Below, in pieces: positions 25,808-60,705 of a stretch of 64,000 nucleotides of DNA; the stretch's first letter is position 1; every line of letters starts with the position of its first letter. The translations under genes and the position numbers were made by a program. The notes under the pieces were generated by a model, which ran no database searches, was not told the origin of the DNA, and saw only the letters and a list, made by a program, of their open reading frames with translations. Origin of the DNA: Hemileia vastatrix (Eukaryota > Basidiomycota > Pucciniomycetes > Pucciniales > Zaghouaniaceae); contig JASXTE010000002.1 of the NCBI GenBank assembly GCA_030280995.1, positions 15,452,683 to 15,516,682 of the forward strand, written 5' to 3'.

Positions 25808-25823
25808 AGGGGGTATCAATGTT
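25808..25823. repeat. Left terminal inverted repeat of Harbinger copy 2
   Basis: AGGGGGTATCAATGTT preceded by ATT. Beyond these 16 bases the two ends differ (GACCAATCC here against CAGGGATCGG at the other end). Confidence 0.75.
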
Positions 25824-27095
25824 GACCAATCCGCAATTAAATTAATTGTGTAAAATAATCTGCATACCCCAATAATCTTCCACAATTATTTTTGCTAATA
25901 ATTGGGTTATTAGACACTTTACGTGTCAATGTTCACCTCTTATCTGAAATTTTTTTACTCAATTTTTCATTACCATATCTTGGACAACTTTCTGTCATAA
26001 CCACATCTTGACCTACTTTCTGCCATAACCACATCTTGGACTACTCTCTGGATATGGCTTCTACCTTGCTGCACACTCACATTCTCATCCCACCCTGTCC
26101 ATTCTATCCGCTCAAAATGCCTCACCATCTCATCTGCTTGTTTCTGCTCCTTTTCATCTTCATTTATATTTTAACATGCCTTGTCGTCCTAGATCTTCTC
26201 AAAGGCAGCCATCACCCAGTTGTTCTTCAAATTCCACTACTCCCTCTTTTCCCTGCTCAGCTGACAAATCTAAGACCTTTCAATTAAAAAAAGATGATCA
26301 TCTCATTCTTATCAACTGGCTGAAAACCAAATCTTACTATGATTCTTGTTTTGGTACTGAGTATGGAACTAAAGTAGGACAGCCCCCAGCATCAAAAGTT
26401 AATGGCTATCTTCTAATGGCCAATGAATTACAAAATTATACAAAGGGAAGGATTGATCTTTTGCCTAAACAGATGTCTGAACACTTCAAGCATTACCGAG
26501 CCAAATACAAGAAGGCAAAGGCTCTTTCATCTTCAACTGGTTTTGGGGTTACCAACATTGATATAACTTAGGGTATCAAATCCATAGACGATAAACTTGA
26601 ATCTTTATTTCCTTACTTTAAAGAGATTGATGCAATTTTTGGAGAGCAAGCCAATATTAATCCTGTAAACATGTTGGATGGAGAAGATCCTATCTCCAAA
26701 CATGATGTTGAAGCAAATCTTTTCCCATTCTCTTCCTCCACTCAAGCCTCCCCTCATTTGAATGAGACAAATCTAGATAGATTTTCAGTAGATCCTATTG
26801 GTGATTTAACCCAACCAAATCTAACTCAGGTCTGTTTCTTTTTTCTTTTATCTTATCATTTCTATTTTTTATTTACTTATCTTTTTCTTATTTCTTAAAA
26901 GGCTGATGAACAAACCCAGGATCCTCAATCAACTGAGTCTGAAGGTAGTGACAATGATGAGGAGGAAAATATGACCTTGAACAAGAAGCGTAGGGCTTCA
27001 TGTAGTCTAAATTTCCACTCACAAAGAAGACAAAAAATTTATACTTCATCACAAACCCCTTTTTTGTCTATGGAACAATTTTTAGAGAAACGTTA

Positions 27096-28208
27096 TGGTA
27101 AGGTAAACTCTTACAGTCGCCTTGCTGTAAGCAGAATCCGGAGGAGATATGTGGATTTAGCTGAAAACCCCGTCCTTCCAATAAAAAATAACAAAATGGG
27201 AATTCTAAATCACTAAGCTAACCATTCTACTTGGATCTGATTGATAAAAATAATGAAACTCTAAAATATTTAATGCTTATTGAGATTTAAATAAATTGGC
27301 TGTTGAGAAAGAAATACTGATTACAACAATTAAGGTGTACCAGTGAAAGATCTGAAAAGATTGACTTTTATGTTTTTATAACAATTTGAATTTTTATGAG
27401 ACAGAAATAATCAAGTCCCAGTAATGAAGACCTTTCTAAAGATAACCTGTATGAAGTGTGATTTAAATTGTTGAGTAGTATTTCTAAAATGTTATATATA
27501 AAATATAAAGTTATAAGGGTATTACAATTTATTTAATTTGTTGAGTAATAAAAAAAATGAGACTGTGGTGGTTAAAGATTAAGCTATCTGTTTCTGATGA
27601 TTGTAAGATGATGCCCAATTTCGAGTCTGAGAGGCTCTTAAGTATAACTATTCACGTTGCCTAAATTTCCCCTCCAGTGCTCACCCAGAGTCAATCCGGA
27701 GCCCGTACGGAGCTCGTACGGAGCCTGTACGGAGTCCGTCCGGACTCAATTAGAACCTTTAAAACTATAATAAAGAATCTAGAAAAATTACACATAATAG
27801 AGCCACTTCCCCTTTACATTCCAAACTAATTTTTGTAGTCTGCGCAGCTCTAATCATTCCGTGAAAATTCATCAAAGTTAAGTAATTTCTAAAAACATAA
27901 ATATTTCTATAAAACTTTAAAATTCATTTAAAAATATAAGAAAAATAGTAAAAATTCTGGGAAGATTTCCCAAGGTTCTTGAGTGACTCAACTTAATACT
28001 TAAAAACTCTTCAGACCGTAAAAATAAGTTTTCTCTGTAAAATAAATTGTTTTCGTGTAGGCATTTGCTCTTGACCAATTTCTTCATATTTAAAACTCAA
28101 ATAAATTAAATAAAACCCTTTTATAAAAAAAATAATAACGCCAATCTTGCACGCCGTAATAACTCCATTTACGTACTTAGGTGCCATACTAAACTTTAGG
28201 CTACCACA
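27096..28208 (-). repeat. 3' LTR of D
   Basis: TGTGGTAGCC start (28208) and ...CTTACCA end (27096), with only scattered differences from 45144-46256. It contains an 11-bp tandem repeat GGAGCYCGTAC at 27698-27741, a GC/CpG-rich island in otherwise AT-rich sequence. Confidence 0.9.
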
Positions 28209-28593
28209 TCCTCCCTCCAATTGAGAATGTCCCCATTCTCAAAACTTTGCATAAGTGTTTGAGCAATTCAAAAAGAATTATCTTTTCTAATAAAATAATT
28301 TGATAAATTTGTTTTAGCTGGTCTTCTTTTAATTCTTTATAATAAAAACGTTGTTTCTTCTTTTCTGGCTTGATATAACATAAAATAAAACAATATAAAT
28401 CTTGTGATGATTCCACTACTGAGAGCAAGGTTTGAATCCCTTCAGACTCCCATATACCAGTCTTCCTTCTTGTCACAGCATTGGGAGTGGATCTTCCTAA
28501 TGAGCCGAATACTCCTGATTCCAATCTCATAGGGTCCCCCACTGAGCCAAATTCTATGATTCCAATCTCGCCATAAGGTCCTCCAAGCTTCAC
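28209..28593 (-). CDS. Candidate small 3' ORF of D (conserved in C)
   Basis: An open frame of about 130 codons starts MKLGGPYGEIGIIEFGS at 28593 and runs into the LTR. The stretch KLGGPYGE-x-GII-x2-GS-x-G-x-PM and VFGSLGR is also encoded in C near 23110-23210 with a stop, so the block is conserved between two elements. Function and translation are unknown. It could instead be a conserved noncoding signal upstream of the polypurine tract. Confidence 0.35.
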
Positions 28594-28869
28594 ACCAAAA
28601 AAAAATGGCCTAACTATGAGGCACTAAAAAAAATCATTCCCTAAAATCCAACTACCATCCTAACTTCTGATTCCTTCAACACAATTTTCAAACTTTGCTA
28701 TGCAGCAAACCCATAAAATACTTTTTCCAGGCTTCCAATAATAATATTAACTTTAGACCATGTTAAAGCGCCACAAATTTCACCTAATTAACCATTATGC
28801 TTTCCTTGGCATCATCACCACCTAAAATTTTAACCTCCTAAAGCTTATCAGCACCCAATTCCAGAAATA

Positions 28870-29529
28870 ATTGAATAATCAGTTTAGAGTCTTGGTGGAC
28901 AGTGATAAATTAAAAGATTGAATTGAGTTATCCAAACAAGATTGACATTCCAGTTTAAAGTCTTGGTGGACAAAACATATAATCGATTGCCAGTTTATGG
29001 TCTTGGTGGACCAAAGATCGTTTAAGTGCATAAATAACTTGAAATATTCCTAAGTAAGGCCTAGGCTTGACCAAAGATTGAATAAACTTGATAATCCAGT
29101 TTAATGTCATAGTGGACCAAACATTTGATCGACAAGTAATCCAGTATAAGGCCATAGTGGACCAATGAATGTTGAATTATCCTGCAGATATTAATTTTCC
29201 AGTTTAAAGTCATAGTGGACTAAAACAATGAATGCACTACAAGTTTAAAGTCATGGTGGACCAAACATTTGATCAATAAGAAATCCAGTTTAAGGTCATG
29301 GTGGACCCAACAGCTTGATAATAGTCCAGTTTAGGGTCTTGGTGGACCTAACAACTTCTCTATCCTTGAACCCTTCTCCAAAAATTTCCATAAAATCTTG
29401 AACGTCTTTGAATTTCAGTTTAAAGTCTTGAAGGACTAACAGCTCCAATATAAAATCTTTAATGACAGTCTCAAAAATTAGCCAGTTTAAAGTCTTGGAG
29501 GACTAACAGCTCCATAGATCATATAAAAC
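28870..29529 (-). repeat. Array of CAGTTTAAAGTCTTGGTGGAC motifs, part 1
   Basis: About a dozen degenerate copies, read on the plus strand as CAGTTTAAAGTCTTGGTGGA or variants, near 28880, 28951, 28991, 29097, 29142, 29199, 29239, 29286, 29326, 29417 and 29483. They are spaced irregularly by about 40-90 bp. Read on the element's sense strand they translate as V-H-Q-D-F-K-L. They lie in the noncoding tail of D and are interrupted by A2. Confidence 0.85.
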
Positions 29530-30653
29530 TGTCAGCCAGGCTATTCCAGGAGTCCAGTAAATGATATGTAACTTATAAGACCTGAAAGAGGGGGTAAGAA
29601 TTGTATTTAATGTATATAAATTAATATTTTACTGCATAATAAAATTATATAAGTATTTTATTACATATAAGTGTTATATTAATTTTATTGGTTATATAAA
29701 TTTTTTATACATTTAAATTTAACATAATATATTATATTCTACAAATAATGGCACATTTTTTATGTATTTAATAATTATAACTTTATATTTAATTAATTTA
29801 AAACATATATTATAATTATAAGTGTAAAATTTACTTATAATATAATTAAATTAATTATTTATATTTATATATTAAATATCATTTTTTATAATATTAAACA
29901 ATAAATAATGACGCTTCTTTTGACCTATAATTGTGTCAGGAAAAACTAATTAATACTGAATTGAAATAAATTACATATTTGTTGCGTCAGAATATTTTTG
30001 TTTCACTTAAAAATCCTTAAATCAGACTGTACCATCTGTTTTGAATGATTTTTCTCATAGTTCCTATGTTCCAGGCTTTTTTAGTTATTCACTATTTTTA
30101 CTTACTGATTTGGGAATTAATGGCGGGAAAATTGGATTCTTAATTGGGGTTTAATTATTTGTTTCATATTTTTCTCTACATTGTTATTTTTCACTTACTC
30201 TTTGATATACTTGTTTTATCCTATTATAATTATTGTATTTACAAATATAGTGGCGCTTCAGAGGACCCATTGCCTATGAAAAGGGCCTTGGATAATCCCC
30301 TGTAGCCTCATCACTTATTACACACTCAACAATTTAAAGATAAATTTATTACGCTTATTATTATTTTTATTAGTATTAAATTCTAATTAAAAATTCTAAA
30401 TAACAATTTAAAATGTTGCCTTAAGTCTGATAGTAATTATAGTGTTTGCCGCGCAGAACTCTTACTTAAATAATATTAATATTAATAAAACCAATTTGTT
30501 GTCACCTCTCAAATCACTCGTCGTTGCTTTCTCTCAAATAAATTAAATAATTTCAATTGTTTTTATTTCTTTTATTTCTAAACTACTATCTCCTTCTTGT
30601 CCTCCTCTCTTTTCTTCCCTCTTCTCTTATCTCTTCTAGACGACTGACCGACA
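29530..30653 (+). repeat. 5' LTR of A2
   Basis: Starts TGTCAGCCAGGCTATTCC and ends ...CTGACCGACA. It includes GTGGCGCTTCAGAGGACCC followed by CTATGAAAAGGGCCTTGG, the promoter-like block. The 3' copy still has TATAAAAAGG there, so this TATA has mutated in the 5' LTR. Confidence 0.92.
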
Positions 30654-31329
30654 ACTGAGGGCCTTTCCAAACGATGACGACGATCGAGCCTGGCGACGAA
30701 CAACAAACGCACAGACCACCTAGCAAAAACAAAACTTTTGCCGCGACCGTGTTTTGAACTTGGGTTCAATTTCTTAGGTTTATATTGTATTAATTCATAT
30801 ATTATTTTGAAGTGATTTTTTGATCACTATAGTAAGTTCACCTTTGCACCTCTCACTCATATTACTATATTTTTACTGCAATAACAGTGATTGTGGCTTA
30901 ATTGCTGATTCACTGAGTGTAAGTGTTCAATTATTAAAATTTTTTTTTTCCTAGTTGACCATTATAGAGTGTTAAATCCTCTTAGTCCTAGAAGAAATGA
31001 CATTATTATTAATACAAATTGAATTATTAAATTAATTTTTTTATTATTAATTATTGTTAATTTTGGTTGACTTAAAAGTACTTTGTGCTTAGTCCCAAAT
31101 ATATTGCCATATTTAATATTGGTAATTAATTGGTTGAATTAACTTGATTGTTTATTCCCAATTTAACCTTGCAATCCATTTTTTAAAATTAATTTTTTAT
31201 AATTATTACTTTATATTAAAAAATTTTTTTTGTAATTTAATTAATAAAATTTTTTTTATATTTGGAGCAATTATTAACTAACTTTTATTATTTTTTTAAA
31301 AAAAAAAGTTAATTAATCTTCCCACTATT
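30654..31329 (+). other. Leader of A2
   Basis: Noncoding. It begins ACTGAGGGCCTTTCCAAAC, which shares GCCTTTCCAAA with the A1 leader and may be the primer-binding site. The rest is AT-rich up to the gag start. The 63-codon minus frame at 30578-30769 overlaps the LTR end and is not supported. Confidence 0.5.
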
Positions 31330-33700
31330 ATGTCCAACAATTTGGCTGAAAAAATGGATAACATGCAAGTGGATGAAATTGAAATTGACTATGATGCTGA
31401 TACTGTGAGTTCTTCTAAAGTTGGACATAAAAAATCTTATGCTAACACAAAAAATTCACATAATTCAGGATGTGGAAATGACAGGAAATGTAAACAAACC
31501 AAACCCCCTTCCCCCAGCACCACAGAAGGAAGTAAAGCCTCTAGTACCTCAAGAAGGTCTTCCAAAAGGATTCAAAATAAAAAAGCTTCCTCTGCCACAA
31601 CAAATCAGCAAACTGTCCAGTCATATAAAAGAGTTGAAGACAGAAAATATGACGTACAAAGCAAAAGTAGACACCTTGTGGGATCAGGTTCAAGAACTCA
31701 GGAACCAGATTCAGGCCCAGGCCCCTCCTCAATTGCCTCCCAATCAGCCTCAGTTTCAGGCTCAACCTTCACAGCCACCCAGCTCAACCATCCAAAATCC
31801 AAATACTATGGAAGTAGAGCAATGGAAATGGGATTATCTATTGAGTCACTACCAACAGAATGTGCAACACCCTCCTCATCATCAGCCTGGCCCATCCAGA
31901 ACACCCAATTTCCATCCACCTCCTCATCCCTACCAACAAGGCAGGAGAAAGAAGGCCCAAACACAATCCCAAACCCAGTCTCAGGGGAAGCTTCCTCCTC
32001 TGCCATGGTAAGTAATTTGGTTGATAGTCACTTGGGTGTGTTTTCTAATAAATCTTCTTCTGCAGGTAATATTATTGAACATGCTGAAAGAACAGTTAAA
32101 CCTGTTAAAAGACAGCTTCCTGTAACTAGTAGCCCTATTGATGTAATTAGCAAATTGTCATTTGATGAACCTTTACATTTAACTTCTACTTCTTTAATTA
32201 ATCCTTCTCTTGCAATTAAAAATGATTCTGTTCCCCCTGAAATCTATACCTTAATTGAAAAAACTTCTGAGGAAATATTGAAAGATACCCTTGATTTTAA
32301 TGTTGTGAAAGACAAACATGTGAGAGATGTGTTAATCCATGAAAATGATAGATTAAATAATTTACACTTGCAATGTAAAGTGAGTTCTTCTGTACAAGAT
32401 ACAGCTTATTTAAAAATCAAAGAACCCTTAAATATTGTTCTTAGTCAACAAAAACAAATAAGAAGTGACCATAGAGCTATCTCAGATAGAAATATCAGTC
32501 TACATAAGACCTTGAGTGAATTGAAACCCCTTATTGAAGAAAATTATTCATTCAAAAATGAAATAAAATCTCTGAAAAATGAGTTTAAAAAGCTAAGAAA
32601 TGATTTCCATGCACTAAGTACCAAACACTCAGTTTCTGAGGACAGAAATGTTCTATCTCTTGCAAAAGTAAATGACCAGATGTCTGAAATTCCAAGAGTA
32701 AGAAACTATGTGTCTGACCTGCAGGAAAAGTTCTCAACCTTAACCATCAATAATGAATTAAATGAGATTGCTGTCAATAAGCTGCATAAAAATGAAGGAA
32801 AACCTGAGCAAAGTTCATCATTTCTTCCTCATATTTCAACCATTAAACAAACTGACAATAAGTCTGTAAAATCTTTTGCTACTAGCAAAAAATCTTGTGA
32901 TGGTCATGCACCAGCTGTTTCTGTAAATAATGAAATTTCTTAACACCTGGCTAAACTTCAGGAATTATTAATAATGAATAATTCAAACCAAAAAGTGGAC
33001 CATCCCAGTAGTCAGAAAAATTGGCCTAAGTTGGACCAATATCCTACCTTTGATGGTGATTCTTCCTCTGATTGGCAACACTTTATCCAAAGAATTGATA
33101 ATTTAAAAAGATCTTATAAAATACCTGATGAGGAAATTGTTTCTAAGCTAATTTCTTTATTTTCCAATGTAGCCTTGATGTGGTATGAATCTGTTCTTTT
33201 AGATAACAATCATTATACATGGAATGATTGAAAATCCTTGATTGATAATCAGTTTGGTGGTTCAAAATTCAGGTTAGCTAAAAAAGACTGTATGAGAATA
33301 TTAGATATTTAGCCTCCTCTGTTGAAAAGCCAATTGTTTTTCTTATGAAACTGACAAAAATCCTAAGAGCAATTGATCCAAAGATGGATTATGATATTTG
33401 GAGAGATAAAATCTTGTATAAATTACCAAATTCTCTTAGAGATTTGATTGTGGCTAGAACTGAGAATGTAAGGGAAAATTCTTCTTTCATTAATATCTGT
33501 AATGAGGTACTACTCAACCATAGATATGAACCAAAGAATTACCTTGGTAAATCTTATAATGATCAGAATAAACCTTCTACAAAGCTCCCAGAAAAATCTG
33601 GTAAACCCTCTGCCCCAGTTGCACCTAAAAAATATGCAACAAATACTTGTTATAAGTGTAACAAACCGTGGCAGAAGGGTCATGTTTGTGACAAGAAAAT
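31330..33700 (+). pseudogene. gag of chromovirus A2 (spliced, broken)
   Basis: Exon 1 31330-31404 (25 codons) ends at GTGAGT. A 64-nt intron with a GCTAAC branch-like site ends in TTCAG at 31468. Exon 2 (from 31469) continues in the +1 frame with QEGLPKGFKIKKLPLPQQ, conserved in A1. The long frame 31330-32943 that overlaps it is fortuitous in this part and coding again from roughly 32100. A donor GTAAGT is at 32008. Then follow a coiled-coil-like region, a stop at 32941, the capsid part (KNWPKLDQYPTFDGD, from 33015), a Trp-to-stop TGA at 33230 with a nearby frameshift, and the zinc knuckle CYKCNKPWQKGHVC at 33649-33690. Confidence 0.78.
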
Positions 33701-38319: not shown

Positions 38320-38352
38320 CATTTTTTTATTGTTTTTTTTAGAGTGAGGGAG

Positions 38353-44588: not shown

Positions 44589-44591
44589 AAA

Positions 44592-45139: not shown

Positions 45140-45143
45140 ACTA

Positions 45144-46256: not shown

Positions 46257-46713
46257 ACATGATGCTGGTAAGTTATACCATACCTCTTATTAATTTACTC
46301 TACTTTTCTTCTACTTTATATTAATTTTTATTATCACTGTAGAACAAGTATAAATTGCTAAAGAGACTCTAAGCTTTGAAAAGAAGAAATGCAAGCTCTC
46401 TTTAAGGAGGGATGATAGGCTACAAGATTTGGAAGAGAGGAAGTACGAGCTCTCTTTACAGAAGGATGATCGGGCCCAAGATTTGGAGGAGAGGAAGTAC
46501 GAGCTCTCTTTAAAGAAGGATGGTTGGGCCCAAGATTTGGAGGAGAAGAAGTTTAAGTTAACTCTAAGTATTGAAAAATCAAAAAAAGAGGAGAAAACAC
46601 TCAAACATCAAAACCTATTAGAGCAGATGAAATATAAGTTTGATCATGAAGAAAATTCCAAAAAGAAAGATTTCTTGATAGAATGTGTTAAAGCTAATAA
46701 ATCTGTTGAGTAA

Positions 46714-47628
46714 AATGAACGTTTAAAGAAATTGTTGGATGACTAGTTTGTTTTATTTCTCTCACACTTCAACTGTTCATATTTATTTGAACATAAAATT
46801 TTATCTTAATCTCCTGTATTTCTTCAATCTATCAATCTTTACTTGAATTTTTGTATTTTAATGTTAAATATTCTTTTTTTAAATAAAATTTTCATGTCTC
46901 CTTTGAAAATTTGACAATCCCCCACCCCTGGATTCTTTTGAAGTAAGGGGTGGGTATAACCAAAATTCTTTCATTTCATGAATCTTGAAAGTCTTACATG
47001 AAACTTTGGCTTTACTACCCCCTGCATTTTACCGGTATCCCCAAAATTCTTACATGTCAAGAATTTTACAAGTCTTATAAGAAATTTTGGCAAAACCCCC
47101 CATGGATTTTATTGAAGTAAGGGATGGGTATCACCAAAAAAATTTCACCAAAATATTTACAAGTCAAAAAAATTCTATATCTGTTTTAAAAATTTGGCAA
47201 TACTCTCCCCTGCATTTTGTTGAAGAAAGGGGTGGGAATAACCAAAAATTTTCTAAGTCATCAATTTCACATGTCAGATTTGAAAATTTGGCAATACCCC
47301 CCCTGCATTTTATTGAAGTAAGGGGTGGAAGTCATCTAAATTTAATATAATTACATAAATTATTAAATAAATATCTAATGTATATCAATTTCCCTAGTTT
47401 AAAGTAATGACAATTCCTCAAGCCAAAATGCAGATCAAATCTAGAAACAAAAGTTTGGGAATTTTCACAGGTATAGGCTAGAGGAACCCCATGAAAAAAA
47501 TAAATGTTATCATGATTACCTGTTATACAACCCAAGGTCATTGTCCCATTAATTTAGTTGAGGAAATTGATATATATAAAATATTTATTAAAAATTTACG
47601 AAAAAATATAAAATTTTTGATGACAACT
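46714..47628. repeat. Tandem hairpin-forming repeats between convergent transposon genes
   Basis: 46905-47335 has four degenerate units of about 100-120 bp, each with CCCC(A)CCCCTG...TTGAAGTAAGGGGTGGG (self-complementary CCACCCCT / AGGGGTGG) followed by ACCAAAATTCT and TTTGGCAATACCCC. 47336-47628 is AT-rich spacer. Position between the 3' ends of the Myb-like and oxygenase genes suggests transcription end signals, but this is inference. Confidence 0.7.
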
Positions 47629-48999
47629 CTAATCCCCATACTTTTTAGATCTAGATAAAGTTTTTTTAAATTGATTAACTTTACCTTCTTTCTTTACCTT
47701 GTTGATTCTTTGAATCAACTTATGACTGATTTGAAATGAGCAATCAAAATGTGTTAAATCTTGACAGGATTTCAAACCAGGAGGAGCTTTGGTTGTTTGA
47801 TGATTATCCTTAGAAGAATTCCAAATATTTTCGATGATACCATTTCCCAAACCAAAATCAATGATTCACCGGTGGTCTGGAAAATATAAACCATGTCCTT
47901 TGATTTTAGCTGGAGATGGTATTGGTTGGCCAGTTATCAGATTGATATATGAGAATATACCAAAATTAAGAAAATTGGTGTCATTCCTATTGATATGAAT
48001 CCTATTGTGGAATCCAGAATGAGTGATAATAACATTATAAAATAAAAGATATTCTTGGCTGATATCTTCCCATTTGGAGTCACACCAATTTGGTATTCCA
48101 ACTTTGGTTTCAAGTTCATGATTTTTTCAAACGCTTTATTACAGAGCTTTTTGAGTGGAAGAGCAAGAAAAGAGTTAAAGGATGGTAGAGTGTCCCATAA
48201 GCAAAAATCTTTTTCTTTTTGAGCTTTAGCGATATTCTTGAGCAATGAATATATGCCTATATAATTGAAATAAGTGAAATGATATTAAGAATGGAACAAA
48301 AATTATTAGACATACCAAGAGGATATCATTTAACAAAACCTGGTCTCCAACCAAATCCAATCATGATACCAGCCAACAAATTTGTATTCCTTATAGGTAA
48401 TCAAACCAAAGCCATTTGATAAAGAGTTATTATAAGATCCAATAGTTGATTAAAAGATTCATCTTTTACACCATCAAATGAATGAACTTCCAAAATGAAT
48501 TGAGCCTTATAAGTATTACTGATAACTGCAACAACTCAATCATCTCCAAATTCTGTTAGATATTTGATATCTTCTGGTAATTTTTTCGGATATTGATTTT
48601 TTTATCTACTTTAGTTTTATGAAAAAAAATGTTTGGGATATGATGAAAATAACTTTCACAGAGAATTTTTTTTTCAGATATCTTTTCTTCTGATGAGACT
48701 GATTATCTTTAATTTATTTTGATGATTTAGATGATGAATTTTTTTTTTCAGATATCTTTTCTTCTGATGAGACTGATTATCTTTAATTTTTTTGGATGAT
48801 CTAGAAGAAGAATTTTTTTTTTCAGATATCTTTAATTCTGAGAAGACTGATTATCATTAATTTTTTTTGATGTTTTAGAAGATGATTGTATTGAAGTTGA
48901 TTTTGAAGAAGAAGATAGAGATGATAAAGATGAAGAAGATATAGATTATAAGGATGAAGATGATAGAGAAGTAAGGGGTGAATCTGAAGAAGAAGACAT
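47629..48999 (-). pseudogene. Tet/JBP-like 2OG-Fe(II) oxygenase, copy 2
   Basis: Starts at 48999 with a Ser/Asp-rich low-complexity N-terminus. The middle reads LPEDIKYLTEFGDD, FILEVHSFDGV and GFGWRPGFVK; a 59-nt intron (48315-48257, GTATGT to TATAG) follows. Then LWDTLPSFNSFLALPLKKLC, HSGFHNRIHINRND, a GIFSYINLITGQPIPSP block, KGHGLYFPDH, IIDFGLGNGIIE, DNHQTTKAPPG and CSFQIS. The splice joins both frames in phase. Tet/JBP enzymes oxidise 5-methylcytosine or thymine in DNA (known for the family). Metal-binding HxD reads H-I-N (near 47995), and the distal His is near 47800. Stops and frameshifts (for example TGA before IIDFG) make it inactive. Family assignment is from memory of rust Tet-like proteins. 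Confidence 0.65.
48675..48895 (-). repeat. 75-bp tandem repeat in oxygenase gene N-terminal region
   Basis: Nearly three copies of a unit containing TCAGATATCTTTTCTTCTGA, GACTGATTATCTTTAATTT and GATGAT, in the Ser/Lys-rich N-terminal region of the oxygenase pseudogene. One repeat of the same sequence survives in copy 1 near 10300. Confidence 0.8.
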
Positions 49000-49480
49000 T
49001 TTTTTGATCTGAAAAAAATTTAAATGTCAAAAAAAAATTCAACACATATTTTTTAAAAAAAAACTCACGTAATTATATCTTTTAAAATAAAATTTAAAGC
49101 AATATCCTTTTAAAAAAAATTAAGAAAAATTTTAAAACAATAATTTTAAAATTTTAAGTAAAAATTATTTCAAAAAAAAAATACAAAAGAAAACCTGAAG
49201 TTTGGTTATAAAAAACCTTCACAGAAAATCCTGTCAAAATAATAAAAAAATAAAAATAAAATAAAAAATCTGTAAAAGAAAAATTAGAACAAATTAAATT
49301 TAAAAAAAAATTAATTCAGTAAAATTATTTGTAAGAAAAATTAAAAATTAATATCTAAACCTTTTTTGTTTTGTCATTTACAGGGAAAGACCTTAACAAA
49401 ATGTAATAGTTTTTTTTTCTAAAAATGTGCCAAAAAAAAAATAAAGTTACATTTTAGTATGTTTTTTAAAAATTAGGTAT
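49000..49480. other. A/T-rich spacer
   Basis: Runs of A and T with no gene; equivalent to 9661-10177 in copy 1. Confidence 0.5.
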
Positions 49481-50065
49481 CCCCTCTTTAACTCCCATTA
49501 CAGTCCCCTTTCCCCCTTTTTCTTTCTCTGAAATCACCTCTAAAATCCCTCCCTCATTTCCTCAAAACCACCCTCAAATCCCCTCCTTGCCTGTCTCAAA
49601 ATCCCCCTGAAACCCCCTCCTTAATTGCCACAAAACCACCCCCAAACTCCCCCTTTTACCCCTTTTTATATGTCCCAAACCCCCCTCCATTCCCCCCTCT
49701 TTAGCCGCTTCAAACCCCCCCCCTTAAACTCCCCTTAAGCCTTCTCTACCCCCTCATCCTCCTTAAGAAACGATTGCTAATGATCGTTTGTTAAGAAGGA
49801 GGGGGGGTAGAGGTGGCTAAAGGGGAGTGGAAGGGGGGAAGGGGGATTTTGAGACGGGTAAAGAGAGGAGAAGGGGGGAGAGTTGAGGCACCTAAAGAGA
49901 GGGGAAGGGGGGTCATGAGGCACCTAAAGAGGGGGAAAGGGGGGATTTGGGACAGGCAAGGAGGGTGAAATAAGGAAGACTTGAGGAAGGTAAAGAGAGG
50001 GGAGAAGGAGTGACTTGAGGCAGGTAAATAGAGAGGAAAAGGGGTGAAATGAGGCAGCTAAAGAG
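49481..50065. repeat. Inverted C-rich/G-rich minisatellite with central hairpin
   Basis: Left arm 49490-49760 is C-rich with units of about 33-40 bp (CTTTAGCCGCTTCAAACCCC style). Right arm 49799-50060 is their reverse-complement type (GGGGATTTGAGGCACCTAAAG style). In the centre, CCTTAAGAAACGAT (49761-49774) pairs with ATCGTTTGTTAAGAAGG (49782-49798). A similar pair of arms exists in copy 1. Confidence 0.7.
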
Positions 50066-50608
50066 GGTGAAGAAGAGAAAAAAAAGAAAAAAAAAGAGAA
50101 AAAAGAGAAAAAAAAAGTTAGTCTAACCTTGAAAAAAAAAGGACTTACAAAAAAAAAATAAAATAAAATAAAAAAACAAATAAAAAAAACAAAAAACAAA
50201 AACAAAAAACAAAAAACAAAAACAAAAACAAAAAAAACAAAAAAAAGCAAAATAAAAAAATTCATGATTAGCAAATAAAAAACAAGAAAAAGGAAAAAAA
50301 AAAGACTTACCTGGTGAGATGAGTTGAGAAAATAATAGTAACAAAAATATTTGAGTGATGTTTGAGGAGAGGATGAAAAGGATATGAGTGATGAATGAAA
50401 AAAAAAATCACTGACAAAATATGTGATATAAGAAAATTGGTGATTTCATGTTGAGCTGGTGAAAGAAAACCAATGAGCCATCCAAAAAAAAGATATTCAC
50501 CGTAAATTCAAAAAAAAAATGAATATGCAACAAACCAAAATACAAAACCAAGTGAATAAAGTACACAAAGAAGACATTTGGAAAGTATGAAAACATAAAA
50601 ATTAAAAA
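50066..50608. other. A-rich low-complexity spacer downstream of transposase
   Basis: AAAAACAAAAAC-type runs; Phe-rich open frames on the minus strand are composition artefacts. No gene. Confidence 0.5.
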
Positions 50609-51871
50609 TTAAAAGTGTTGCAAAGTAAAATGTTGGAGAGTAATTGGCATTATAATGGAGCGTATGCCGGTTGATTGAATGATTTGTGAATCAAAGGAGG
50701 GGAGAGCCAGTGCTGGTTCAGGATCCTCTTCTTCATAAAGATCATTCCACTCATCCTTTAAATCTGCTAGGATATTTTGGAGTATAATGCAAGTCATGAT
50801 CCAATGATTTTCAGTTTTGATCTCCAATTTTTTTTGAAATTGGATTCTGAGCTCCTAAAGACTAGAAAATTGTCCCTTTAAAATAGCTATAGCATGTTCA
50901 ATCCGTACTCTTGATTGGGCAAGGTGATAATTAAATTTAGTTTTGGGGTCATTTTCTAAGGTTGCACCACAGAAAGCAGGTATAATGTACTTCCCACTTG
51001 CATATGCTGAGTCTGCAAGGAGGTACTGAGATTCATCAAAGTATGAGTCAGGGGTTTGAGAAATCCTCAATCTTTGGAAGACCAGAGAGTCATGACATGA
51101 GCCAGGGCAGCCACTATGAAAACCAATAAATTTTTTATTGACATCGCATACAAGTTGAACGGCAATAGAGTATCTAGAAAGAAGATGAAAATTTAGTTTA
51201 TGAAGGATGAGAAATTGGAGAAGATTTTGAGGAAACCTTTTTTTTGCAATCAAAATAATGGTTTCCATCATGAGCAGGCTTTTGACTCAAAGGTATAGTT
51301 GTGCCATCAACAAATTCTACACAGCCAGGGAAACCTTAAGCTTGCATTACTTGAGAGGATTCAAGTCGCTGTTCTGGAGTTGGCCAAGCAAGTGTTTGAG
51401 ACTTGAGGGAAAGGATAGCAACCATACAGCGCTTGGTGTATAATATCATGGTACCATATCCTATATTAAAGAGATTATCCAAACGTCTTACAGCAGCACC
51501 GTTTCCATTTGAGCCAAAGCAACATAGTGCAACTGCAAGTTGGATGGCAGGATTATGTGTTTGTTATGGGAACTTTTATGAAAGATAGGATGATCAGAGA
51601 TGAGTTGATAAAGTTTGAAGAAAGAATTGGGATAAGTTCTAAAAATTTGGGTGAAGTTTAAATGAGGAATGTTGAGAATGGAGGCCAGATCATATCAGGG
51701 ATCATGATAAAGATTTGGCCCCCTGGTGATGATGTAACACTTTTTGGAAAGAAAACACATATAAGCTAAAGCATCTTCCAAATCAGAGTCAGATTTATAG
51801 TAAAGAGCTAAAAGAAAAGTAATAGCATTCATTGTTGAGTGAAGTAGCTTCCTAGTAGAGAGGTGTTTCAT
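50609..51871 (-). pseudogene. PIF/Harbinger DDE transposase, copy 2
   Basis: Starts MKHLSTRKLLHSTMNAI at 51871. The nuclease core is better kept than in copy 1: FVDGTTIPLSQ (first Asp, near 51300), GCPGSCHDSLVFQR, LLADSAYASGKYI (second Asp, near 51020) and RVRIEHAIAILKGQF (Glu, near 50895), 38 residues between the last two. The C-terminal IMTCIILQNIL block is at 50609-50790. Several stops and frameshifts between 51270 and 51710 (for example DP-stop at 51695) break the N-terminal half. The DDE residues themselves are intact. It is transcribed toward the oxygenase gene. Confidence 0.82.
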
Positions 51872-52144: not shown

Positions 52145-52920
52145 TGTCACGTGCCACGTGACAATCGAGGCGAAATCAACTCATTAAATCAATAATATCG
52201 AGTCCTAAATCTATACTCGAAGCGCAGAAAGCAATTCTCCATAGCAACTGCGATTTTCCTTTGTGTACTTACTATTTAACTGCGCTAGCCTAAACTCTAA
52301 ATCTAAATTAGTCAATCTCCCAATAGGGTACCTTAGTCCTTTTCAATAAGCGACGCACAGCGCTAGGTTCAACGAAATAGTACAGTAGTAGTTTTTTAAA
52401 TTAAAGTTTTGTTAATTAATTAAAAAGGGGTAAATTGAGCATGGACGGATATTTAGTGAAGAGGGTATAAGTGTATGTTAGTAATGGTCAATGGAATGGG
52501 AATGGTGCGATGGAAGGGAGGTCAATGCGAGGAGGAACAAAGGATATAAAAGGAGTTGGGTATTTGGTTCGATATTCCTTAGAATTAAATTATAAAATCG
52601 TATTTACATTAATAGTGTTAAATCTTTAAAGTTAAATCATTGTTATTGTATCTTTCTTTTATTTTCTCAATATTCATTTCTAAATCCTAAATCTTTGATT
52701 ATTGAGTTTTCCAACCCTTTGTGAGATTTTAAGAATTACTATTACCTTTGAAACTAGTTTATAATTCTTCTCAAACGAACCTCAAACCTATAGCTATTAC
52801 TTCGAGTGACCTTCGAATAATTTCCTCAAATCATTCCTCTGTGCTTCGAAGAAGTTTCTAAAATCCTTCATCTCACTTCCAGGAACATCCTTAACCTTGT
52901 ACGTAGGTCGTCCAGTGACA
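52145..52920 (+). repeat. 5' LTR of B2
   Basis: 776 bp, from the perfect palindrome TGTCACGTGCCACGTGACA to ...GTCCAGTGACA. A TATA box TATAAAAGG lies at 52545-52553, placing the transcript start about 30 bp further on. It is followed by GTATAATTTAATTCTCC, conserved with B1. Confidence 0.92.
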
Positions 52921-52991
52921 GTATAATTTAATTCTCCGTAGTTCTCATTCTTTGCACTACTACGTCCTTTTAGGTGTTTCTAAAATTCTAA

Positions 52992-54179: not shown

Positions 54180-54213
54180 TAGATAGTTTACTTGTGTGCA
54201 AAGCAAACTATCT
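54170..54213 (+). promoter_or_regulatory. -1 ribosomal frameshift signal, gag-pol of B2
   Basis: Slippery heptamer A AAA AAC at 54170-54176 in the gag frame, immediately followed by TAG TAG. A 9-bp stem then pairs AGATAGTTT (54181-54189) with AAACTATCT (54205-54213) around a 15-nt loop. Slipping back one base enters the pol frame, which is open from here (LVDSLLVCKANYL). The same cassette is in B1. Confidence 0.82.
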
Positions 54214-57200
54214 TATCTCTCCCAGTGCACAGAACCTCCATGTCTTAAGGACTGGAGTTGCCTTAAACCGCTTGAGATTCATTCTTTTTAAGGAGGATAT
54301 CCCCTTCAGTTATCTTATAGACTCTGGAGCTTCAATTTCTTTTGTTAGTTTATCTTTTGCCGAGAATCTTCAACTAACATTTACAGATATTGATCGAACT
54401 CCCATCTATTTGGTCAAATCAGAGGAACCCAAATATTGGGTAAGTAAGAAAGTTTTATGGGTTTTCAACTTTCCGAACTTTCCCCCCTTCGAGTGGGAAT
54501 TGTCAGTCTTGGACGCCCCAAGGATGGACGATACCATTCATGGCCATGACTTTTTAACGTATTGGAATCCCGAAATTGATTGGACTAGGGGATTGATCAC
54601 CCCACGCTCTAAGTATATTTCTGATTCTTCAATGCAGGTCAATAGGGAGTTAAACAACCCGCCTGACAACGTCCTGCTAGAGGACAATTCTCTGCCAGAT
54701 GACTTGCAAGCATCTGATCCTCCTTTAAATGAGCAATTGGCTAACCCTTCTAGCTCAATGACTTCACTCGAAGAGGATTTAAATTGCCTCGAAGTAATCG
54801 AATTCTGCTCTCTCAATACAGGTATCCCCTCGACAGATTCTCTCGAAGATGAAGAGGACGACCAAATCACCGTTGAAGCCATCAAATCAACTCTACCGTA
54901 AATCTACCACTATTTCCTCGATGTTTTCTCAATCTGCAAGGCCAATAAGTTACCACCTCATCGACCCTACGACCATCAAATAGAGTTAATAGGCCCAGTA
55001 CCTCCGGCAGGTCCTGTCTATTCTTTATCGAAGGACAAATCTCAAGTTCTTCGAGACTACATTGCAGAGAATGTAGCCAAAGGTTTCATCAGAGCCAGTA
55101 AATCTCCAACCGGCTCCCCTGTCCTTTTTGTAAAAAAGAAAGACGGTAGTCTTAGGTTGTGTGTTGACTATAGAAAGCTCAACACAGTCACTAAGAAGAA
55201 TGCATATCCTGTTCCTCCTATGTCATTACTTCTTACCCTTTTTAATGGTGCTAATTTCTTTTCTAAAATTGATCTTAGAGGCGCTTACAATCTTATTCGC
55301 ATTGCGGAAGGTCATGAACCACTGACTGCAATGCGCACTAGATTTGGTAGTTTTGAATATTTAGTTATGCCTTTTGGATTATGTAACGCACCTTCAACTT
55401 TTCAAACTTTTGTTAATGATATCTTTCAAGATGTTGTTGAACAATTTGTAGTCGTCTATTTAGATGATATTTTAATATTCTCGAAAACACTAGATGAACA
55501 TATTCATCATGTTCGACAGGTCCTAAATCGACTTCGAGATCATGGTCTCTACGCCAAGCATAATAAATGCGAATTCCACCTCAAATCAATTGATTTTTTG
55601 GGTTTTACATTTTCCACTGATGGTTTAGTCATGGATGACAAAAAAGTCCAGAAAATCCTGGAATAGCCTGAGCCCAAAAACATTAAATCACTCCAAGGAT
55701 TTTTGGGTTTTGCAAACTTCTATAGAAGATTTATTAAAGATTACTCTAAAACTATTTCCAATCTTACTTCTCTTCTTAGAAAAGATATTCCTTTTGTTTT
55801 TACTTCTACAGCACGAAAGGAATTTGAAGCACTAAAAACGGCGTTCACCACAGCCCCAATTCTTCGACATTTTGATCCTTCTGCCTTGACAATAGTTGAG
55901 ACAGATGCGAGCGATTATGCTATTGCAGGGGTCATCTTCCAATTAAATCCTGAAACAAATTTGTTTCATCCTGTTGCTTTTGAGTCACGCAAACTCATAG
56001 CCTCAGAATTAAATTATGAAATTCATGACAAAGAGCTTTTAGCTATTATCCATTGTCTTAAAAAATGGCGTTCTTTTCTTCTCAGCCTAGATAGTCCTTT
56101 TCAAATTTTAACAGATCATAATGCTTTGAAATACTTCATGTCTTCTAAAGTGTTAACCAGGCGTCAAGCCAGGTGGGCTGAATTTTTGTCTGAATTTTCT
56201 TTCTCTATTTCCTATTGCCCAGGAAAAAACTGCATTGTCCCAGATATCTTGTCACGTCGGGAAGACGTTTACCCACAGCGGGGGGACGCATTTGCTGACA
56301 AGAACCCAGCAAATGTGCAATCAATCTTCAACGAATCAATGTTAACAACTCATCAACTTAATTCGATGACAATTCATTCTTTTCGAAATCCACTATCCAA
56401 CATCCTCGAAGCTCAGTCAAAGGACGATTATTGTTTAGGGTTAAAAGACAAAATACTCTCGAAGCAAGGGGCCAAAAGATTTAGTATTGAATCAGGTCTA
56501 TTAGTCTTCAAAGGTAGAGTAGTCATACCCGACAACAATGAGATAAAATTATGGATGCTCAACAGTTGACATGATTCTCCATTAGCTGGTCATTTTGGGG
56601 TTGATAAAACCTACCAGTTAATAGCGAGGGATTTCTTCTGGCCAGGTATGACCAGGGAAATCAAGGCCTATATAAAAGCTTGTTACGAATGTAATAGGAA
56701 TAAGGCTCCCCGTCACCGGAAGCATGGGTTGCTTAAACCACTTCCTATTCCCTCTAAACCTTGGGAATCTTTATCAATGGATTTCATTTCTTAGCTTCCT
56801 ATTTCTAATGATTTTGATGCTATATTAGTAATAGTAGATAGATTTTCAAAAATGTCTATTTTTATTAAAACCACTACTACTGCTACAGCAGAAGATTTGT
56901 CAAAATTGTTTCTAGAATATGTATTTTCTAAACACGGCTTACCAAATGATATTATTTCAGATAGAGGCTCGTTGTTTGTATCCACATTCTGTACCCAACT
57001 ATGTCGACAACTCAATGTCACGAGGAATCTCTCCACGGCCTATCACCCTGAAACCGATGGTCAAACAGAAAGAGTTAACCAAATCCTCGAACAATATCTT
57101 CGAATGAATGTCAGTTACCAACAAGACGATTGGACCACATGGTTACCATTAGCCGAATTTGCTTATAATAACTCGACTCATTCTTCGACACAACAATCTC

Positions 57201-57826
57201 CCTTCGAAACCATTTATGGACGACATCCTCGATTCAACTCAATCCATGTAGGAACTAATCATCCTGTGGAACATTATCTTCGAACTATATCACGACTCCA
57301 AGAAGAACTTAAAACAAATTTGGAATCAGCGATTCGAAGTTACAAGGAACAGGCCGACAAACATCGACAATCTGCTCCTTCCTTTAAACCAGGCGACAGA
57401 GTATGGCTCGACGCACGAAACATTCGAACAACAAGACCATCAAAGAAACTGGCTGAAAAGCGCTTGGGACCATTCGAAATCAACTCTGAAGTCTCTAAAA
57501 CTGCATTTCGACTCAAGTTACCTCCTAAATGGCAGGCGATTCACCCTGTTTTCCATGTATCTCTCCTGGAACTGGCTTGAGAAATATACCCGGGCAAGAA
57601 CCAACCCCCTCCGGAACCGGTTGAAGTAGAAGATCATCTAGAGTGGGAAGTAAGTCGTATCCTTGATTCAAGAATACGCAAGGGGAAACTTCAATACCTC
57701 GTGGAGTGGGAAGGCTTCCTCAATGACTCAGACAAAACATCCTGGGAACCAGCCATCAATGTTTCTAACGCTCCTGAACTCCTAAAATCTTTTCATTTGA
57801 AATATCCTTTAAAACCAAAACCTTAA
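54180..57826 (+). pseudogene. pol of chromovirus B2 (five stop codons, no frameshift)
   Basis: Protease YLIDSGASISFVS (54320). RT: LCVDYRKLNTVTKK, KIDLRGAYNLIRIAEG, MPFGLCNAPSTFQ and VVYLDDILIFS (about 55452). RNase H: VETDASDYAIAGVIF, HDKELLAIIHCLKKW and LTDHNALKYF. Integrase: HDSPLAGHFGVDKT...CYECNRNK, MDFIS, ISDRGSLFVS and YHPETDGQTERVNQILE, then a GDRVWLDARNI C-terminal part. The chromodomain is HLEWEVSRILDSRIRKGKL, YLVEWEGF and SWEPA (57640-57770). In-frame stops are at 54899, 55664, 56567, 56792 and 57578. The frame is otherwise unbroken to the natural stop at 57824. Confidence 0.93.
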
Positions 57827-58809
57827 AATTTCTTTATTTAAACTTTTCTTTTCTTCTTCTTTCTTTCTTTAAAATCTAAAACACCTCTTAAATTTCTTAG
57901 CCTTGTTTTCTTTTTTCTCTCTTCTTTTTCTTTCTTCTCCTTCTATAAAATTTCCTCCAAAACCAACTAAAATTAAAATCAAAATTAAAATTAAATACAA
58001 TAAAATAAAATTAAATTAAATTAAAATTAAAATTAAATAAAATTAAACTAAATTAAATTAAATTAAATAAAATAAAATAAAATAAAATAAAATAAAATAA
58101 ATAGAATAAAACATAAATAATAAAATAAAATAAAAAACTCATAGATCTCTCTAAATATTTTCTTTCTTTTCTTTTTCAATTCTTTAAATACATTCTTTTC
58201 TTAAAATTAAAATTCTCTTCAAAATTTTCTCTTCCAAAAAAATTTATTCTCTCTTTGAAAAATTTTCTTTCCTTCGAATCATCAAATCTTTTATGACACG
58301 ACCATTTCCTTGAACTTAACTTCAACCTCTAAATCTTCCTAAAATAATTCTTCGAAACAAATAATTCTTCTTTTCAAATTCTCTTAAATTCTAAATTCTG
58401 TTTTTTTTCTTCTCTTTCTTCTTCCTCTCTTTTCAAACTAAAATTTCATAAAAAAAAAAAAAATCCTCAATTTAACAAACTCATCTCAATCACAAAACCG
58501 TTTCTTTTTTCTCTCTCTTTTCTTACATAAAATTTTCCTTTTAAAACACTAAAACTTCCTTCAATTAAACAACCTTTTTCTTTCTTTAAAATTCTTCTTT
58601 CAAATTCTAAAATTTTTTATTTTAAACTTTTTTTTTTTCTTTTTCTCTCTCTCTCAAATCTTATAAAATTAATAACATTCACCTACAATATAAAAAAAAA
58701 ATAATAATCATAATAAAATAAAATAAAACTAAAATACAATTTTCTTTTTTCTACTTCTTTACATCTCCTTTTCATTTCAAATCTTTTCTTTTAACTTCTC
58801 TCAAACCAA
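57827..58809. other. Pyrimidine-rich noncoding tail of B2
   Basis: CTTTTCTTTCTTT stretches and an AAATTAAAATAAAATA low-complexity block (57960-58140) between the end of pol and the antisense gene. No gene. Confidence 0.6.
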
Positions 58810-59725
58810 TCTTTTCATTTTCTCCAAAACTACCCTTATCTCCTTCCTGCATTTCTCAAATACCTCCTCCTCTCCTACCAGAACCACCTCTCCCATCTCC
58901 AAAAGCTCCTCTGCCACGTCGAAGGAAGCAGTGTCGATAATAGTGTCAACCTCCCCACATAGTTCTTCCGCGAACCTTACTCGTCAACTTTGACGAGGTT
59001 TCTTTGACCACACCTGGTCCAGGGTGTCTTCGGGCTCTTCAACTACTTCCGTGGCCGGAGGGTTTGCCTCAGTTGGTATAACCGGCGCAGGTTCCGCAAT
59101 CGGCTCTTTGAGGGTATTTGATGTCGAAACATAACTCATCAGTAACTTCATCCTTAAAATAAACAAATAAAACTTACCTTGAAGATGGGTCAGGCTCTAG
59201 AAATAACCTTGGCGTCACTTCGACCTCTACCTCTCTCTCTTCCTCATTGTCCTTGATGACCACCCGTCATTTCTTGGGTGCCCGCCCGGGAACAGGGACT
59301 TCATCTTCATCCTCCTCCACCGACTCGTCGACCTCTTCCTCAACACCTCGCTTCGAACTCGTGGCCTGGGTTACCCAGGTTGAGATCTCGTTGTTTAACT
59401 CCTTATCATTTTCCCCCACCGATTGTTCATCTTCGATAGAGACATCCCAAATGTCTTCGACCACCTCTTTGGTTTTCGAAACTACCCAAAACTTAGTTTT
59501 GGTAAATCGTTTTTCGATTTCCGCGTTCTTCGTCAACGCATCGCACGCCACTCGCCGCCAACGGCAAAACTCGCATTTCTGGCGAGGGCCTCAAGTCGCC
59601 GTACTTTCGACACAGAAATATTCCATGCTTTCACAAGCCATGAAAGTCTGTGAAAACTGTCGTGTGATTATTCCCCCATCCGCTTTAGGGTGTGGAGGCG
59701 TAGGTGTGGGAGTGGGGCAGTTCAT
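58810..59725 (-). pseudogene. Antisense accessory gene of B2
   Basis: Convergent with gag-pol. It starts at 59725 with MNCPTPTPTPPHPK, then MACESMEYFCVES, a TGA, and a Cys-rich KCEFCRWRRVACDALTKN (CX2CX6C spacing). Next come an acidic region (SVEEDEDEVPVP), a stop, and VTPRLFLEPDPSS. A GTAAGT follows at about 59180, then EPAPVIPTEANPPATEVVEE and LDQVWSKKPRQS ending in TGA at 58990. Similarity to B1 goes on past that TGA (FDVAEELLEMGEVV, EEEVFEKCRKEIRVVLEKMK). Zinc-binding is a guess from the Cys spacing. Function unknown. Confidence 0.55.
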
Positions 59726-59820
59726 TATAAGAATAAGTAATTAAGAGGTGAGGGAAAAAAGTATTAAAAAAAAGGGAAATTAGTGTGGGAAGATGGCTCA
59801 AGCTCAACGGAGTTCGCAAT

Positions 59821-59833
59821 TTTTATACCCGGG
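59821..59833 (-). promoter_or_regulatory. TATA promoter of the antisense gene of B2
   Basis: CCCGGGTATAAAA on the minus strand, just inside the 3' LTR boundary, identical to 12514-12526 in B1. CTCCGTTGAG about 20 bp downstream is also conserved, as expected for a core promoter. Confidence 0.6.
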
Positions 59834-59837
59834 CATC

Positions 59838-60594
59838 TGTCACGCGCCACGTGACAATCGAGGCGAAATCAACTCATTAAATCAATAATATCGAGTCCTA
59901 AATCTATACTCGAAGCGCAGAAAGCAATTCTCCATAGCAACTGCGATTTTCCTTTGTGTACTTACTATTTAACTGCGCTAGCCTAAACTCTAAATCTAAA
60001 TTAGTCAATCTCCCAATAGGGTACCTTAGTCCTTTTCAATAAGCGATGCACAGCGCTAGGTTCAACGAAATAGTACAGTAGTAGTTTTTTTCATTAAAGT
60101 TTTGTTAATTAATTAAAAAGGGGTAAATTGAGCATGGACGGATATTTAGTGAAGAGGGTCTAAGTGTATGTTGGTAATGGTCAATGGAAGGGAGGTCAAT
60201 GCGAGGAGGAACAAAGGATATAAAAGGAGTTGGGTATTTGGTTCGATATTCCTTGAAATTAAATTATAAAATTGTATTTACATTAATAGTGGTAAATCTT
60301 TAAAGTTAAACCATTGTTATTGTATCTTTCTTTTATTTTCTCAATATTCATTTCTAAATCCTAAATCTTTGATTATTGAGTTTTCCAACCCTTTGTGAGA
60401 TTTTAAGAATTACTATTACCTTTGAAACTAGTTTATAATTCTTCTCGAACGAACCTCGAACCTATAGCTATTACTTCAAGTGACCTTCAAATCATTTCCT
60501 CGAATCATTCCTCTGTGCTTTGAAGAAGTTTCTAAAATCCCTCATCTCACTTCCAGGAACATCCTCAATCTTGTGCGTAGGTCGTCTGGTGACA
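59838..60594 (+). repeat. 3' LTR of B2
   Basis: 757 bp, TGTCACGCGCCACGTGACA to ...GTCTGGTGACA. It lacks a small stretch (AATGGAATGGGAATGGTGCG) present in the 5' LTR near 52490, hence the shorter length. Confidence 0.9.
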
Positions 60595-60705
60595 TCCACT
60601 AGCCCTGGGGCTAGTGGATAAGAATCTTCTGCAATTAATAATGTCTGATCCTGGAAAAAAAATTCCTGATCCCTAATTGCCGATCCCTGAACATTGATAC
60701 CCCCT
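60595..60705. repeat. Right subterminal region and terminal inverted repeat of Harbinger copy 2
   Basis: Contains a perfect 12-bp palindrome ATCCACTAGCCC/GGGCTAGTGGAT (60594-60619), an array of GATCC(C)TGA-type short repeats (60648-60688) and the terminus AACATTGATACCCCCT at 60690-60705. Short subterminal repeats often bind the transposase (general knowledge). Confidence 0.65.

What the first reader, a model, noticed from the sequence alone, without database searches (positions are those of the whole stretch)
25808..60705. Harbinger-type transposon that carries a Tet/JBP-like DNA oxygenase gene and a Myb-like gene
Both copies in the window have the same three genes in the same order and orientation: DDE transposase, oxygenase-like gene in the same direction, convergent Myb/SANT-like gene. 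Both sit between AGGGGGTATCAATGTT termini. Fungal Tet/JBP genes are known to spread with KDZ-type transposons. As far as I know, linkage to a PIF/Harbinger transposase is not a described arrangement. An element that encodes an enzyme able to edit DNA methylation marks could counter its own silencing. The gene order is seen; the oxygenase identity rests on motif resemblance; the role is inference.
Basis: partly seen in the sequence, partly recalled or inferred. Interest (0 to 1): 0.88.

Follow-up and report, generated by a model that had tools for sequence, protein, structure and literature searches.

The report
Rust transposon carrying exchangeable oxygenase gene
A very abundant cut-and-paste transposon in what looks like a rust fungus carries a gene resembling enzymes that erase DNA methylation marks; such pairings were published in 2025, but here the gene sits in an internal slot that seems to have been swapped, shortened or emptied between closely related copies.

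Summary
Copy B (25808-60705) is a true transposon insertion with a paralogous empty site at 8673-9262. Both copies keep a DDE_Tnp_4 transposase, a Tet-like 2OG-Fe(II) oxygenase (PF20515) and a convergent Myb-like gene; copy A keeps one terminus. Both are dead: stops, and the Fe-binding Asp is Asn. The terminus occurs 8,225 times in the genome.

The headline is not new: Kojima 2025 (PMC12730594) described Tet-carrying Harbinger elements in rusts and proposed anti-silencing. New here: (1) target duplications are AWT, shown by empty sites, not the TA of his PHISTA group; they fit the ANT of Pangu. (2) The oxygenase sits in an exchangeable slot: of ten complete copies two have both exons, six lack exon 1, two have none. 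Relatives with similar transposase and Myb genes (dS 0.18, 0.37) carry a distant oxygenase (dS 1.7), while a distant family with other ends shares the window-type oxygenase. Some exchange edges fall in repeat arrays. (3) Copies show CpG decay, strongest at TCG. Demethylation itself is inferred, not shown.

The parts
25808..25823 (+). Copy B, Myb-side terminal inverted repeat
   Evidence: exact 16-mer; 8,225 copies in the genome, control 0; 3-bp duplication ATT on both sides
26176..26571 (+). Copy B, N-terminal part of the Myb-like gene (frame then interrupted by a stop; gene split by an LTR element at 27094-46256)
   Evidence: 79% identical over its length to the copy-A ORF; homologues incl. 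Puccinia striiformis
46360..46720 (+). Copy B, C-terminal coiled-coil-like repeats of the Myb-like gene
   Evidence: matches in 10 of 10 complete copies L009-L018 next to the Myb-like part
46881..47340 (.). Copy B, roughly 93-bp repeat array 3' of the oxygenase (right edge region of the slot)
   Evidence: units at 46925, 47099, 47207, 47300; same array in 16 of 17 fetched elements
47689..48999 (-). Copy B, Tet-like 2OG-Fe(II) oxygenase remnant: exon 2 homology 47689-48257, exon 1 homology 48329-48673 plus low-complexity 5' part
   Evidence: PF20515 1.8e-12 for one frame; exon homology; HxN and 4 stops
49480..50080 (.). Copy B, C-rich then G-rich repeat arrays between oxygenase and transposase (left edge region of the slot)
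   Evidence: sequence; equivalent arrays in L018 at 2474-2711 and 2953-3205
50609..51871 (-). Copy B, DDE_Tnp_4 transposase remnant
   Evidence: DDE_Tnp_4 1.2e-19; 3 stops in 383 aligned codons
60690..60705 (-). Copy B, transposase-side terminal inverted repeat
8673..9262 (+). Paralogous empty site of copy B (the sequence lies inside copy A)
   Evidence: flanks 25424-25808 and 60698-60903 contiguous here
6305..8207 (+). Copy A, transposase remnant
   Evidence: 82.4% identical to 52135-50216; 8 stops in 384 aligned codons, first catalytic Asp changed to Glu
10360..10849 (+). Copy A, oxygenase remnant with internal deletion
   Evidence: exon 1 and exon 2 pieces; HxN and 4 stops in 203 aligned codons
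19642..20622 (-). Copy A, Myb-like ORF (326 codons open)
   Evidence: homologues
20722..20737 (-). Copy A, Myb-side terminal inverted repeat (its other end lies upstream of the window and has lost the terminus)
5491..6304 (-). One LTR of the gypsy element that splits copy A
   Evidence: 95.2% identical to L037 7279-8093

Best explanation
SHOWN: a cut-and-paste DNA transposon of the PIF/Harbinger (PHIS) superfamily with ends AGGGGGTATCAATGTT and 3-bp AWT target duplications, encoding a DDE_Tnp_4 transposase, a Myb-like protein and a Tet-like 2OG-Fe(II) oxygenase; both window copies are dead and were later opened by LTR retrotransposons. STRONGLY INDICATED: the oxygenase lies in an internal slot between the other two genes whose content has been replaced by recombination between elements (whole gene, exon-1-less gene, a distant oxygenase, non-coding DNA), with some edges in repeat arrays. 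INFERRED: transposase and Myb-like protein recognise the ends and move the element; the oxygenase, where intact, oxidises 5-methylcytosine on element DNA and so delays silencing and CpG decay (about even odds). If so it can act in trans, since copies without it have also multiplied.
For: Profiles PF20515 and DDE_Tnp_4. Termini genome-wide and complete copies. Duplication AWT: 12 of 14 pairs identical, 0 of 14 extend to a fourth base, empty sites clear for L011, L014, L015, L017. Slot: L013 and L017 match L018 at 95-99% on both sides with nothing shared between L018 2708 and 5578; T2 copies dS 0.18 and 0.37 in transposase and Myb but 1.72 in the oxygenase; family C dN 0.30 and 0.37 in transposase and Myb but 0.13 in the oxygenase, with non-coding DNA after the oxygenase 84-86% identical. 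Selection: window-type against C-type oxygenase dN/dS 0.10. Scars: C-to-T in ten copies 40 of 232 at TCG, 46 of 569 at other CG, 169 of 15,699 elsewhere.
Against: No activity, expression or methylation was measured. 8 of 10 sampled complete copies lack exon 1 or the whole gene, and empty-slot copies have multiplied (5 of 63 Myb-anchored places). dS above about 1 is saturated and imprecise. The exon-1-less edge at 4487 and the left edge with family C do not lie in the two arrays. The Myb fold rests on models of mean pLDDT 72.1 (one of five models; the others under 50) and 65.4. Two pairs, L013 and L020, have unequal triplets.
Confidence: 0.75

Rival explanations
1. The elements are simply PHISTA families as published: Tet-carrying Harbinger transposons with TA duplications and a third protein without a Myb/SANT domain.
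For: Same superfamily, same cargo, rust hosts incl. Austropuccinia psidii. All 14 flank pairs can also be read as TA if the ends are written GGGGG..CCCCC. No Pfam Myb match reaches its curated score.
Against: 12 of 14 triplets identical and empty sites that hold AWT once; for L011 a TA reading would predict a longer empty site than its sibling copies show. Two copies of family C with other ends also have AAT on both sides. Weak but repeated Myb signals.
Confidence: 0.2
2. No exchange took place: the oxygenase merely evolves at uneven rates, fast in T2 elements and slowly between window-type and C elements.
For: T2 copies carry 1 to 4 stops in 285-327 aligned oxygenase codons, so decay is present; only three groups were compared, without an outgroup.
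Against: The jump is at synonymous sites too (0.18 to 1.72); the non-coding DNA after the oxygenase is 84-86% identical between window-type and C while the flanking Myb-side DNA does not align; L013 and L017 show outright replacement.
Confidence: 0.12
3. The oxygenase is passive cargo without use to the element, kept only because it sits between the ends.
For: 6 of 10 sampled copies lack exon 1 and 2 of 10 lack the gene; both window copies are catalytically dead; among window-type copies dN/dS is 0.35, not low.
Against: dN/dS 0.10 between window-type and C-type oxygenase; HxD kept in 8 of 9 window-type copies outside the window, 3 of 3 T2 and 3 of 3 C; in PF20515 all rows listed of the 150 scored hits pass the cut-off and many frames are open.
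Confidence: 0.3

Closest known systems
PHISTA: Tet-positive Harbinger transposons of rusts (Kojima 2025, PMC12730594)
   Same: PIF/Harbinger-type transposase, Tet/JBP-like oxygenase and a third protein in one element; rust hosts; same proposed role
   Different: Duplication is AWT here, not TA; third protein is Myb-like here (weak support), stated not to be so in PHISTA; slot variants not described there, and no signature at the edges of transferred genes was found there
Pangu group of the PHIS superfamily (Han et al. 2015, PMC4482050)
   Same: ANT target duplication, ends beginning with AG, two-gene base plan
   Different: No oxygenase reported in the parts read; transposase kinship not tested; in its own section the second ORF has no known motif, while the Discussion counts it among the Myb/SANT ones
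Canonical PIF/Harbinger
   Same: DDE_Tnp_4 transposase plus Myb-like protein, 3-bp duplication
   Different: Duplication TWA there, AWT here; carries an extra oxygenase
KDZ transposons with Tet/JBP genes (Kyakuja, Dileera, Zisupton; as told in PMC12730594)
   Same: Transposon-borne Tet/JBP gene in basidiomycetes
   Different: Unrelated transposases; 8-bp duplications reported for Zisupton
Sap1 of fission yeast (PMC6053445, passages)
   Same: Predicted fold of the Myb-like domain; Sap1 also is a myb-type helix-turn-helix domain followed by a coiled coil
   Different: About 10% identity over the aligned part; host protein; medium-confidence structural match only

Membership tests
PIF/Harbinger superfamily (PHIS) | DDE_Tnp_4-type transposase | tested here: met
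   1.2e-19 in copy B, 8.3e-25 in L035
PIF/Harbinger superfamily (PHIS) | terminal inverted repeats and short target duplication | tested here: met
Canonical PIF/Harbinger group | TWA duplication | tested here: not met
   AWT (AAT or ATT); definition from PMC4482050
Canonical PIF/Harbinger group | second protein with Myb/SANT domain | tested here: inconclusive
Pangu group | ANT duplication | tested here: met
   AWT in 12 of 14 pairs and at empty sites; only A and T seen at N
Pangu group | ends beginning with AG or GG | tested here: met
   AGGGGG; definition
Pangu group | transposase within the Pangu clade | not tested
   no reference transposases at hand
PHISTA (Kojima 2025) | TA duplication | tested here: not met
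   3-bp AWT shown by empty sites
PHISTA (Kojima 2025) | carries a Tet/JBP-like oxygenase | tested here: met
   at least part in 8 of 10 complete copies
PHISTA (Kojima 2025) | third protein without Myb/SANT domain | tested here: inconclusive
PHISTA (Kojima 2025) | transposase within the PHISTA clade | not tested
   reference sequences and supplements not at hand
TET/JBP 2OG-Fe(II) oxygenases | match to the Tet-like profile PF20515 | tested here: met
   1.8e-12 (copy B piece), 3e-32 (L035 open frame)
TET/JBP 2OG-Fe(II) oxygenases | HxD and distal H Fe ligands | tested here: met
   HxD in 8 of 9 window-type copies outside the window, 3 of 3 T2, 3 of 3 C; HxN in L012 and in both window copies; the distal H is kept in the 17 copies listed
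TET/JBP 2OG-Fe(II) oxygenases | oxidation of 5-methylcytosine | not testable with these tools
   needs an enzyme assay

The most novel reading that the evidence does not exclude
The element is a chassis with an exchangeable cargo slot: repeat arrays beside the Tet-like gene let recombination swap, trim or empty it between element lineages. This would explain how Tet genes pass between rust transposons without moving by themselves, and means the genome holds natural with-Tet and without-Tet siblings of one transposon, so that the anti-silencing idea becomes testable by comparing methylation and spread of sibling copies.
Probability: 0.5. Interest if true: 0.7.

Novelty: new variant of a known kind. 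Interest (0 to 1): 0.52.

Why it matters
If the slot is real, it offers a mechanism for the frequent transfer of Tet genes among rust transposons, for which the 2025 paper found no signature at the edges. It also supplies a natural experiment: closely related transposons with a whole, shortened, distant or absent Tet-like gene in one genome, whose copies carry methylation-type mutational scars. Methylation data could then show whether a transposon-borne Tet gene protects its carrier, acts on all carriers, or does nothing. It further suggests re-checking the TA duplication that defines PHISTA.
Full report
What is in the window. The 16-base end AGGGGGTATCAATGTT occurs exactly three times: at 25808 (+) and 60690 (-), facing each other, and at 20722 (-). 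Copy B runs from 25808 to 60705 and was opened by LTR elements at 27094-46256 (1,115-bp LTRs, 97.8% identical; inside it a further pair of repeats at 29530-30654 and 38353-39477, 98.7%) and at about 52141-60594 (94.4%). Its flanks are contiguous, without the element, at 8673-9262. Copy A: transposase 6305-8207, oxygenase remnant 10360-10849, Myb-like ORF 19642-20622 on the opposite strand, and one terminus. Its transposase-side end is upstream of the window, split by a gypsy element whose LTRs of about 815 bp are 95.2% identical; the terminal bases are gone. The three largest blocks shared by A and B are 82-85% identical.

Gene identity. A single-frame piece of the copy-B oxygenase matches PF20515, Tet-like 2OG-Fe(II) oxygenase, at 1.8e-12, and a transposase piece matches DDE_Tnp_4 at 1.2e-19. 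A 393-codon open frame in the related element L035 matches PF20515 at 3e-32 over profile positions 7-211 of 211. A likely GT-AG intron separates two exons: it breaks the frame in L018 and is read through in L035. Both window copies carry HxN in place of the Fe-binding HxD and several stops; the codon change is GAT to AAT after a C, so a CpG was lost.

Copies in the genome. The genome holds 747.6 Mb; the terminus occurs 8,225 times, control 0. Among the first 100 places listed, all inward-facing neighbour pairs under 10 kb were fetched: ten of 5.4-7.5 kb (L009-L018) and three of 0.4-1.0 kb (L019-L021, without matches to the three genes). Of the ten, transposase was found in 10 (in part in L009), Myb-like gene in 10, oxygenase in 8; by exon, 2 have both exons, 6 exon 2 only, 2 neither. 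By exact 24-base words the genome has 1,626 Myb-word, 2,816 oxygenase-word and 270 empty-slot-word places. On contig C2 up to 25.2 Mb, of 63 Myb-word places 36 have the oxygenase word at 2.0-3.0 kb, 5 the empty-slot word at 2.07 or 2.34 kb, and 22 neither, which may mean mutation of the word, interruption or other content. A family search with PF20515 gave 10,849 first-look candidates; 150 were scored and every row listed passes the cut-off; 14 control genomes gave none.

Target duplication. Twelve of 14 pairs (L009-L021 and copy B) have the same three bases, AAT or ATT, on both sides; 0 of 14 extend to a fourth. If the middle base were independent on the two sides, 12 or more of 14 would have probability 0.006. 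Empty sites were found for 6 of the 14: clear ones for L011, L014, L015 and L017 hold the triplet once; those of L020 and copy B are diverged but fit. L011 is inserted in a Myb-like gene of its own family, where sibling copies give exact empty sites. Two copies of family C, with ends AGGGGGTGTCAGTTCTGGCAAATC, also show AAT on both sides. Han et al. 2015 (PMC4482050, passages and the Pangu section) define groups by duplication: TWA for PIF/Harbinger, ANT for Pangu, so AWT fits Pangu. Transposase kinship was not tested.

The exchangeable slot. Coordinates are of L018 turned so that the transposase reads forward. L018 and the empty-slot copy L013 match at 95.4% up to 2708 and at 98.7% from 5578, with nothing in between; L018 and the exon-1-less L012 match up to 2336 and from 4487. 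T2 elements (L030-L032; terminus seen in L031 and L032) match L018 at 82-93% per 300-base bin on the transposase side and 80-91% on the Myb side, and at about 75% or not at all in the oxygenase (L031). Median dS between 9 window-type and 3 T2 copies is 0.18 for transposase (26 pairs), 0.37 for Myb (27) and 1.72 for oxygenase (27). Family C (L033, L035, L036) is far from window-type copies in transposase (dS 2.2, dN 0.30) and Myb (dS 1.8, dN 0.37) but closer in oxygenase (dS 1.26, dN 0.13; dN/dS 0.10), and the non-coding DNA after the oxygenase is 84-86% identical. Such dS values are saturated, so the dN values and the non-coding block carry the argument for C. The block shared with C ends at 5576, beside the right edge of the empty slot at 5578, inside a roughly 93-bp repeat array (5430-5841); the left edge of the empty slot, 2708, lies at the end of a C-rich 33-bp array (2474-2711). 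Array units were found in 16 of 17 elements (none in L010 by the pattern used). The edge at 2336 lies in a T-rich array, that at 4487 near the intron's end, and the left edge with C in exon 1. Repeat-guided exchange is thus well supported for the right edge and suggestive for the left.

Methylation-type scars. Relative to L018 and the sibling majority, C-to-T changes in ten copies are 40 of 232 at TCG, 46 of 569 at other CG and 169 of 15,699 elsewhere; in copy B 12 of 24, 18 of 60 and 57 of 1,697; in copy A 8 of 19, 18 of 49 and 133 of 1,344. TCG hypermutation in repeats of Pucciniomycotina is cited in Kojima's Discussion. This fits cytosine methylation but does not measure it.

What is known. 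Kojima 2025 (PMC12730594) describes Tet-carrying transposons of seven lineages in rusts, among them 15 Harbinger families from six species with TA duplications, whose lineage he names PHISTA and whose third protein lacks a Myb/SANT domain; he proposes escape from methylation-based silencing, sees frequent transfer of Tet genes between superfamilies, and finds no repeat or other signature at the edges. A 2026 review calls these enzymes yet to be functionally characterised (PMC13297926, passages). In the literature searches made here (listings, and the papers named) I saw no report of the slot variants, of AWT for Tet-carrying Harbinger elements or of a Myb-like third protein in them; Kojima's supplements were not read.

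Verdict. The elements are real and were well read, but the claimed novelty of the linkage is pre-empted. What remains new is a family with a different target duplication and good evidence that its Tet-like gene sits in a slot whose content is exchanged.

Noticed in passing
33345-35654 and 52992-57580: Two gypsy-type stretches differ strongly in CpG observed/expected, 0.016 against 0.728, hinting at very different methylation or age histories.
   Followed up: no
L011 (G000:C2:3487441-3495301): A complete element is inserted in the Myb-like gene of another copy of its own family.
   Followed up: partly
63132-63840: 146-base inverted repeat, 95% complementary, arms 417 bases apart.
   Followed up: no
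L019, L020, L021: Three short copies, 0.4-1.0 kb between perfect ends, without matches to the three genes: MITE-like derivatives.
   Followed up: partly
11714-12500 and 18407-19211: Repeat pair, 90.4% identical, of an LTR-type element inside copy A, related to the 52141-60594 element inside copy B.
   Followed up: no
49480-50080: C-rich and G-rich repeat arrays form a long near-palindrome between oxygenase and transposase.
   Followed up: partly
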